Shown here in pieces: positions 12,396 through 27,142 of a DNA stretch of 40,565 nucleotides. Every line of letters starts with the position of its first letter. Positions within the stretch are counted from its first letter, which is position 1. The notes under the pieces were generated by a model. The model did no database searches, had not been told where the DNA came from, and saw only the letters and a list, made by a program, of their open reading frames with translations. The position numbers and the translations under genes were made by a program. Location of the stretch: the NCBI GenBank assembly GCA_017860135.1, contig JAFNAG010000016.1, positions 1 through 40,565 on the forward strand, in the 5' to 3' direction. Origin of the DNA: Acidobacteriota bacterium. GTDB lineage: Bacteria; Acidobacteriota; UBA6911.

Positions 12396-12686
12396 AGCGC
12401 GCGGGCTGAAGAGGGTGTCCAACGGTTGCACCACGGCAAGCTGAGGCGCAAAGCGCCGGAAGTGAATAGCACCGCGCGTCAGCGCGGGGTTAGGGCGCGG
12501 CCATAACCGAGGCCCGAAGGGCCGGCACATACTGCATATTTTCAGGAATTTAGTGCCGCACCTACGGCGCTCAACCACGCTCCATCTCTATCCCGGCCTG
12601 ACGGCCGGGCCTGTTTATTGCCGGCCCTTCGGGCCTCGTCGGACCGTGAAACAACCGTTGGACACCCTCCGAAGCCCATGCTCACT
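12388..12686. repeat. REP-like 36-nt palindrome split by an insertion
   Basis: Left part 12388-12411 (ending ggctGAAG) and right part 12671-12686 (starting GAAGccc) rejoin, dropping one GAAG, to a 36-mer that matches the intact copy at 33204-33239 at 33 of 36 positions. The reconstructed stem is roughly gcgcgggc/gcccatgc around a TGAA loop. The glyS stop codon lies in its left end. Confidence 0.75.
12412..12670. mobile_element. MITE-like foldback element with 17-bp inverted ends
   Basis: A 259-bp element without coding capacity. Its ends are perfect 17-bp inverted repeats: agggtgtccaacggttg (12412-12428) and its complement (12652-12668), plus two unpaired bases at the right. A further five-base match follows after three mismatches. 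Inside are five GC hairpins: ggcgc/gcgcc (12445-12457), ccgcgc/gcgcgg (12472-12487), ggccc/gggcc (12511-12523), cccggcc/ggccggg (12592-12609) and a second ggccc/gggcc (12622-12634). The arms at 12509-12527 and 12619-12637 are also complementary to each other. GAAG flanks both sides as a probable target duplication. No transposase is nearby. Confidence 0.75.
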
Positions 12687-15755: not shown

Positions 15756-15774
15756 GCCCGCCTCGCATGGTGGG

Positions 15775-16038
15775 TGCGATCGGAAGTGGAACTCACAATC
15801 TTCGGTGGAATTCGGACAAAAGGACGCGTCGCGCAGCGATTCACGACAGAATTTATCAATTGTCAATGGTCATTTGTCATTTGGTGCTGCGAGCTCTTGA
15901 CCTGTGTGGTCGAGGTGCTGCGAATAGGGGCAGGCTCGCGATTCTCCGTGACGAAGCTCCAAATTAATCCAAACGAAAATGACAATTGACAAATGACATT
16001 TGACAAATTTCTTTTTGTTGGATTCCACTCCGATTGCA
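15775..16038. repeat. Foldback element, family TCATTTGTCAT, copy A
   Basis: About 264 bp bounded by inverted ends: tgcgatcggaagtgg (from 15775) and ccactccgattgca (to 16038). Nested inside is a second inverted pair of degenerate heptamer-type repeats: gtcaatggtcatttgtcat (15862-15880) against the complementary run in 15975-16007. It shares a 27-nt block (15854-15880) at 26/27 identity, and a 13-nt block gtcgcgcagcgat (15828-15840) at 12/13, with copy B at 26792-27038, which lies in the opposite orientation. It is bordered by imperfect 12-nt direct repeats gcctcgcayggt (15760-15771 and 16039-16050). No coding capacity. Confidence 0.75.
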
Positions 16039-16077
16039 GCCTCGCACGGTTGCACGGTTTCAGAACGGTCGAAATGA

Positions 16078-26605: not shown

Positions 26606-26791
26606 GATTGTGCCTCCCGGGACCGCACCTGCAGGACAGAAGACAGGCTGCCCGATTTCCGCGGATGGAGTTTTCCGCCCGGCAGCAATGGGGAAAATGA
26701 CGCAAGCAGAATCGCTTCCATAGGTCGTATAATCGCTCTTTCAGTGTAGCACATCCTGGAAGCCCCGGGCGCTGCCGGCCCGAAAGCGGCA

Positions 26792-27038
26792 GCAATCGGA
26801 AGTGAGACTCAACCCAGGAGAATCTGTCGATTATCATTTGTCAAATGTCATTTGGGGGCCCGGCAGGTTGGCTCTGTGCTCGGGTACTTCACGCGCTCCG
26901 AACACGATCAGGACGGCACGGACCGAAGGTTTGCAGCGGCCAGATGACAAATGACCATTGACCATTGATACATTCTTTTATCGTTGATCGTTGCGCGACC
27001 TGAATTTTGCGAGCATTGAGCCTCACACTTCCGATTGC
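26792..27038. repeat. Foldback element, family TCATTTGTCAT, copy B
   Basis: About 247 bp with inverted ends gcaatcggaagtgagactc (from 26792) and a near-complement ending cacacttccgattgc (27038). Inner inverted arms lie at 26831-26853 and 26944-26970. Relative to copy A it is inverted: 26944-26970 in reverse complement equals 15854-15880 at 26 of 27 bases, and 26987-26999 equals 15828-15840 at 12 of 13. The centre (about 26860-26940) shows no obvious similarity to copy A. Confidence 0.75.
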
Positions 27039-27142
27039 ACCCCCCGAAAGCGACAGCGGCGGGAGCCGGGCAAGGGCCAAGGAACCGGCATCGAAGTGGC
27101 CATTGACCCGCGGCCGGATTTCGATATCCTGTCAACTCAAAG

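What the first reader, a model, noticed from the sequence alone, without database searches (positions are those of the whole stretch)
15775..16038. Two-copy foldback family with nested inverted repeats
This locus and 26792-27038 share outer ends (atcggaagtg type), a 27-nt block at 26/27 and a 13-nt block at 12/13, in opposite orientation, while their centres differ. Each is itself a nested inverted repeat that could fold into a long hairpin. Conserved arms with a free centre suggest a structure under selection or a mobile unit with gene-conversion-like arms.
Basis: seen in the sequence. Interest (0 to 1): 0.7.

Follow-up and report, generated by a model that had tools for sequence, protein, structure and literature searches.

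The report
Jumping relics of a rRNA-insert gene
The two hairpin-like sequences are two of at least 42 copies of small transposon relics that lost most of a "23S rRNA intervening-sequence" gene but kept its repeat-built stem and the transposon ends; similar genes in five other bacterial phyla carry the same kind of seven-base inverted repeats.

Summary
Observation confirmed: A (15772-16041) and B (26788-27042) share ends, a 26/27-nt block and a 13/13-nt block in opposite orientation. "Two-copy" is wrong. The genome (Acidobacteriota MAG) holds at least 42 complete copies (12 A-type, 30 B-type). Each is bounded by GGGTGCAATCGGAAGTGRGACTCAA terminal inverted repeats (TIRs). Across 44 end pairs the target duplication is 9 bp: 75% identity versus 28% in shuffles, 15 perfect; 8 and 10 bp give 41% and 31%, 5-7 and 11-13 bp chance. 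The same TIR sits at the ends of ISKra4-family transposase genes in other MAGs, but no ISKra4 transposase was found in this genome.

Inside, A and B are different internal-deletion derivatives of one unit: a four-helix-bundle gene (PF05635/TIGR02436, the 23S rRNA intervening-sequence protein, IVP) flanked by inverted arrays of 7-nt repeats (TTTGTCA type). An intact gene lies in a same-genus genome; a 590-bp TIR-bounded near-complete pseudogene lies in this genome. Arms show no covariation.

So these are MITE-type non-autonomous transposons built on an IVS-like stem. Of 20 IVP genes from five other phyla, 20 have inverted flanks above the control 99th percentile (19 above every control window), nearly all with period 7 and differing heptads. 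I found no report of this as a general pattern.

The parts
15772..16041 (-). Copy A: A-type MITE, 270 bp, between LpxD and PPDK genes; strand given is that of the IVP remnant
   Evidence: TIR and TSD; neighbours
15763..15771 (.). Left 9-bp target duplication of A (TCGCATGGT)
16042..16050 (.). Right 9-bp target duplication of A (TCGCACGGT, 1 mismatch)
15772..15797 (+). Left TIR of A
16016..16041 (-). Right TIR of A
15851..15946 (-). A: remnant of the IVP gene 3' end (about codons 101-127) and 3' heptad array
   Evidence: 77% identity to L139 unit 651-753
15957..15995 (-). A: remnant of the 5' leader and 5' heptads of the IVP unit
   Evidence: 85% identity to L139 unit 276-316
15850..15882 (.). 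A: left heptad-array arm
   Evidence: (I1)
15977..16009 (.). A: right heptad-array arm
   Evidence: (I1)
26788..27042 (+). Copy B: B-type MITE, 255 bp, between divergent RecN/SMC-like and MotA/ExbB genes
26779..26787 (.). Left 9-bp target duplication of B (CCCGAAAGC)
27043..27051 (.). Right 9-bp target duplication of B (CCCGAAAGC, perfect)
26788..26813 (+). Left TIR of B
27017..27042 (-). Right TIR of B
26819..26854 (+). B: 5' heptad array of the IVP unit
   Evidence: 78% identity to L139 unit 253-288
26858..26903 (+). B: IVP gene remnant, about codons 37-50
   Evidence: 80% identity to L139 unit 459-500
26905..26968 (+). B: IVP gene remnant, about codons 112-127 with stop, and 3' heptads
   Evidence: 80% identity to L139 unit 685-748

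Best explanation
A and B are non-autonomous transposons (MITEs). SHOWN: 25-nt TIRs, 9-bp target duplications, at least 42 complete copies; and their insides are two different internal-deletion forms of one ancestral unit, a four-helix-bundle (23S rRNA intervening-sequence protein) gene framed by inverted 7-nt repeat arrays. INFERRED: an ISKra4-family DDE transposase supplied from another element recognised the TIRs, cut the element out or copied it, and inserted it into a 9-bp staggered target; the IVP unit was captured between such ends (the 590-bp copy is a late stage of this) and internal deletions then made short forms A and B that multiplied. INFERRED: the inverted heptad arrays come from the IVP unit, where in RNA they would close a long stem around the gene, as in 23S rRNA intervening sequences that RNase III removes. 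In this genome the copies now look like decaying relics.
For: 9-bp duplication, n=44 end pairs including 2 spurious long ones: identity 0.747 vs 0.281 shuffled, 15 perfect, 26 with at most 1 mismatch; 8 bp gives 0.412, 10 bp 0.305, other lengths chance. Copies. Same TIR in other genera of the family: G012 63+61 hits, G004 27+20, reversed-pattern controls near 0. Same TIR directly after the stop of ISKra4-like transposase genes in lake, soil and groundwater MAGs (NF033572 E 2e-13 and 5e-6). IVP origin: 590-bp TIR copy (L014, perfect duplication) 78% identical over 478 nt to a G001 unit with an intact gene (PF05635 7e-16, TIGR02436 3e-23); A and B match separate parts of that unit across deletions. 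Heptad flanks around IVP genes generally: 20 of 20 above the control 99th percentile; independent set 11 of 16.
Against: No ISKra4 transposase gene was found in this genome (MAG, 93% complete) and the full-length ISKra4 genes of G012 and G004 are another subgroup with other ends. No single contig shows both ends of a TIR-matched ISKra4 element. No intact TIR-bounded IVP gene was found. The G001 unit has no such TIR, so capture is inferred from sequence alone.
Confidence: 0.82

Rival explanations
1. A conserved structured RNA or regulatory hairpin family kept by selection on its fold.
For: Both copies fold far better than shuffles; both lie between genes.
Against: No covariation in 29 B or 9 A copies; heptad arrays vary by whole 7-nt units on either arm; no Rfam match at these loci; 9-bp duplications.
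Confidence: 0.05
2. The mobiliser is a DDE transposase of another family and the resemblance to ISKra4 ends is convergent.
For: No matching transposase in the MITE-rich genomes; the only DDE_Tnp_1 gene here sits between 40-bp repeats holding TCGGAAGTGGG.
Against: Near-identical 20-24-nt ends immediately behind ISKra4-type stop codons in three unrelated MAGs; the DDE_Tnp_1 element's outermost bases differ.
Confidence: 0.2
3. REP/BIME-type palindromes moved by a RAYT (Y1) transposase.
For: Some same-TIR elements in G012 and G004 hold REP-like Acido-Lenti-1 palindromes.
Against: REP spread is not expected to leave a 9-bp duplication; A and B have long TIRs and no REP core.
Confidence: 0.03
4. The heptad arrays are subterminal transposase-binding sites of the MITE rather than part of the IVP unit.
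For: They lie near both ends in inverted order in A and B.
Against: They flank the IVP gene in G001 where the TIR is absent, and other heptads flank IVP genes in five other phyla.
Confidence: 0.07

Closest known systems
Bacterial MITEs
   Same: Short, TIR-bounded, target duplication, many copies, no transposase gene, internal-deletion origin
   Different: Interior derives from an IVP unit, so a second, inner inverted repeat (heptads) lies inside the TIRs
ISKra4 family insertion sequences (NF033572)
   Same: Ends GGGTG... and 20-24 nt of TIR identical or nearly so; TIR starts right after the transposase stop
   Different: A and B carry no transposase; no matching ISKra4 gene found in the same genome
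23S rRNA intervening sequences with S23p/IVP ORF (e.g. Coxiella burnetii, PMC4990558)
   Same: PF05635 ORF enclosed by inverted repeats that form an RNA stem; the Coxiella IVS also has GACAGAT heptamers before the ORF
   Different: Here the unit is outside rRNA genes, wrapped in DNA-transposon ends, and the ORF is mostly deleted
Heptameric repeats of Xanthomonas/Nostoc (PMC4692102) and Beggiatoaceae (PMC4679880)
   Same: Tandem 7-nt intergenic repeats, in Xanthomonas often as convergent pairs
   Different: The passages of those papers found here do not link them to IVP genes or transposon ends

Membership tests
MITE (non-autonomous DDE transposon) | Terminal inverted repeats | tested here: met
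MITE (non-autonomous DDE transposon) | Fixed-length target duplication | tested here: met
   9 bp; 8 and 10 bp score 0.41 and 0.31, other lengths 5-13 chance
MITE (non-autonomous DDE transposon) | Multiple dispersed copies without coding capacity | tested here: met
MITE (non-autonomous DDE transposon) | Ends shared with an autonomous element (usual but not required in the same genome) | tested here: inconclusive
   no ISKra4 gene in G000 (incomplete MAG); shared ends found in other MAGs
ISKra4-derived | TIR identity with ISKra4-family elements | tested here: met
ISKra4-derived | Mobilised by an ISKra4 transposase | not testable with these tools
   needs a transposition assay
23S rRNA IVS / IVP unit | PF05635/TIGR02436 gene or remnant inside inverted repeats | tested here: met
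   remnants in A and B; L014 PF05635 E 4e-4 (below curated cut-off); L139 7e-16 and 3e-23
23S rRNA IVS / IVP unit | Location in an rRNA gene | tested here: not met
   both window copies lie between protein-coding genes
Acido-Lenti-1 RNA (RF01687) | Covariance-model match | tested here: not met
   no match in A or B; matches at 12444-12636 and in G012/G004 same-TIR elements
REP/BIME with RAYT | No target duplication | tested here: not met
   9-bp duplication

The most novel reading that the evidence does not exclude
PF05635/TIGR02436 four-helix-bundle genes with their inverted, species-specific 7-nt repeat arrays form a widespread class of mobile unit, of which 23S rRNA intervening sequences are one case. 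The unit inserts in many places, its RNA stem may soften the damage, and transposon ends can pick it up and shrink it into MITEs. The heptad sequence changes freely while period 7 and inversion persist.
Probability: 0.4. Interest if true: 0.82.

Novelty: new variant of a known kind. Interest (0 to 1): 0.62.

Why it matters
It gives a traceable origin for a foldback family and ties together things usually seen apart: MITEs, ISKra4 ends, intergenic heptamer repeats and the functionally unassigned S23/IVP four-helix-bundle proteins. If the heptad-IVP link holds broadly, the spread of IVP genes and the source of many bacterial heptamer repeats become directly testable.

Tried and rejected
Autonomous copy of the same TIR in own genome, G012 or G004: none; unpaired TIRs led to ordinary genes or other palindromes. 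The G012 C614 1.7-kb pair is two separate copies around a PemK/MazF-like gene pair (gene name from reading, not tested). DDE_Tnp_1 and IS256 transposases: no matching ends. Viral contigs and plasmids: no TIR or leader match. Selection on the fold: no covariation. ORF-across-empty-site test was uninformative in this GC-rich genome. Literature: no paper in the held library combined ISKra4 with bacterial MITEs or stated the heptad-IVP link generally.

Full report
Observation. The two loci share ends and blocks in opposite orientation as described (26/27 and 13/13 nt), and each is a nested inverted repeat. They are not a pair: searches of the own genome with each copy gave about 20 A-type and 35 B-type places, and the end motif gave 102 hits against 2 for the reversed pattern. 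Forty-four inward end pairs were extracted; two are spurious long pairings, leaving 42 elements.

Transposon anatomy. The mean identity between the bases left and right of the elements is 0.747 at length 9 against 0.281 in shuffles; lengths 8 and 10 give 0.412 and 0.305, and lengths 5-7 and 11-13 are at chance. Fifteen duplications are perfect. A has TCGCATGGT/TCGCACGGT and B has CCCGAAAGC on both sides. Elements run GGGTGCAATCGG...CCGATTGCACCC. B copies are 93-98% and A copies 86-96% identical to their consensus, the window A copy being the most decayed. These features define a cut-and-paste-type non-autonomous transposon.

Which transposase. The TIR is abundant in G012, G004 and (fewer copies) G011, other genera of the same family, and absent in the same-genus G001; contig lengths tie these to Acidobacteria MAGs nzgw75, gp18 AA62 and Zod_maxbin.0255. 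In G060-G063 the TIR occurs at the ends of longer elements. In G060, nine places carry GGGTGCAATTAAAGGTGCGAGTCA just behind an ORF ending ...KMLALRVLRANRGWEHYW; G062 and G063 show the same arrangement. The G062 and G063 C-termini match ISKra4 (NF033572, 2.2e-13 and 5.3e-6); the 32-aa G060 piece alone was too short to match. Other ISKra4 subgroups also place GGG-ended TIRs right after the stop. The own genome has no detectable ISKra4 gene, so supply in trans is inferred and these copies may be relics.

What lies inside. A 590-bp copy (L014, perfect duplication) reads as a broken PF05635 gene (E 4e-4, below the curated cut-off). G001 has the same unit intact: a 127-aa four-helix-bundle ORF (PF05635 7e-16, TIGR02436 3e-23; nearest solved structure 2RLD) between inverted heptad arrays and without the TIR. 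L014 aligns to it over 478 nt at 78%. Window A keeps the leader and roughly codons 101-127, B keeps roughly codons 37-50 and 112-127, both with the heptads. So A and B are two independent internal deletions of one unit, which explains the shared arms, the opposite orientation and the free centre. G012 also has A-like elements, while other same-TIR elements there and in G004 hold Acido-Lenti-1 palindromes: the ends wrap different palindromic cargo.

Structure. Twenty-nine B copies give 2 of 59 pairs with double changes (shuffle mean 0.8, 85 of 500 shuffles reach it), and the covariation term is unfavourable for both families. Heptad number changes in 7-nt steps. Selection on a fold is not needed.

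Generality. Twenty four-helix-bundle genes from plasmids of cyanobacteria, Chloroflexota, Spirochaetota, Bacteroidota and Bacillota were tested. All 20 have flanking inverted repeats above the 99th percentile (24) of 1,375 control windows taken from 14 of the regions, and 19 exceed the control maximum (28); one, Anabaena cylindrica, scores 26. Period 7 is the strongest period in 19 of the 20 arms (weak in one, Nostoc UHCC 0870), with a different heptad in different organisms. Six of the regions had only short flanks and no controls of their own, and several Nostoc loci are related. In an independent set from viral contigs 11 of 16 exceed the 99th percentile, though two pairs of loci there are duplicates. 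The Coxiella IVS study reports GACAGAT heptamers before its S23p ORF and RNase III excision of a stem-closed element (PMC4990558), which supports the IVS comparison. I did not find the heptad link stated generally, within a library that lacks most subscription papers.

Judgement. That these are MITEs derived from an IVP unit is close to certain; the ISKra4 mobiliser is likely (about 0.75); the general heptad-IVP architecture is the most novel part and deserves a proper survey.

Noticed in passing
window 12411-12672: Another foldback element: 18-bp perfect inverted ends GAGGGTGTCCAACGGTTG enclosing two inverted Acido-Lenti-1 (RF01687) hits; no target duplication seen.
   Followed up: partly
L196, L197, L198, L124: Same TIR family encloses Acido-Lenti-1 RNA-motif palindromes in nzgw75 and gp18 AA62, suggesting this Rfam motif can travel as transposon cargo.
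   Followed up: partly
L412-L435, L436-L451: Four-helix-bundle genes flanked by inverted heptad arrays, sometimes placed inside operons such as between cas2 and cas1 or type I RM subunits.
   Followed up: partly
L063:1097-1521, L104, L096: A further small element with ends CACTGCTGTCCGGTTAA is inserted inside the heptad array of a B copy (nested insertion); the same start appears in two other copies.
   Followed up: no
L249, L272: Contigs in MAGs labelled Bacteroidetes (CTSoil_037) and WOR-3 (RBG_13_43_14) carry B copies; L249 has the same flank as own contig C114, so probable misbinning.
   Followed up: partly
L099:1448-3326: The only DDE_Tnp_1 transposase gene found in this genome lies between 40-bp inverted repeats containing TCGGAAGTGGG, a partial resemblance to the MITE ends.
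   Followed up: partly
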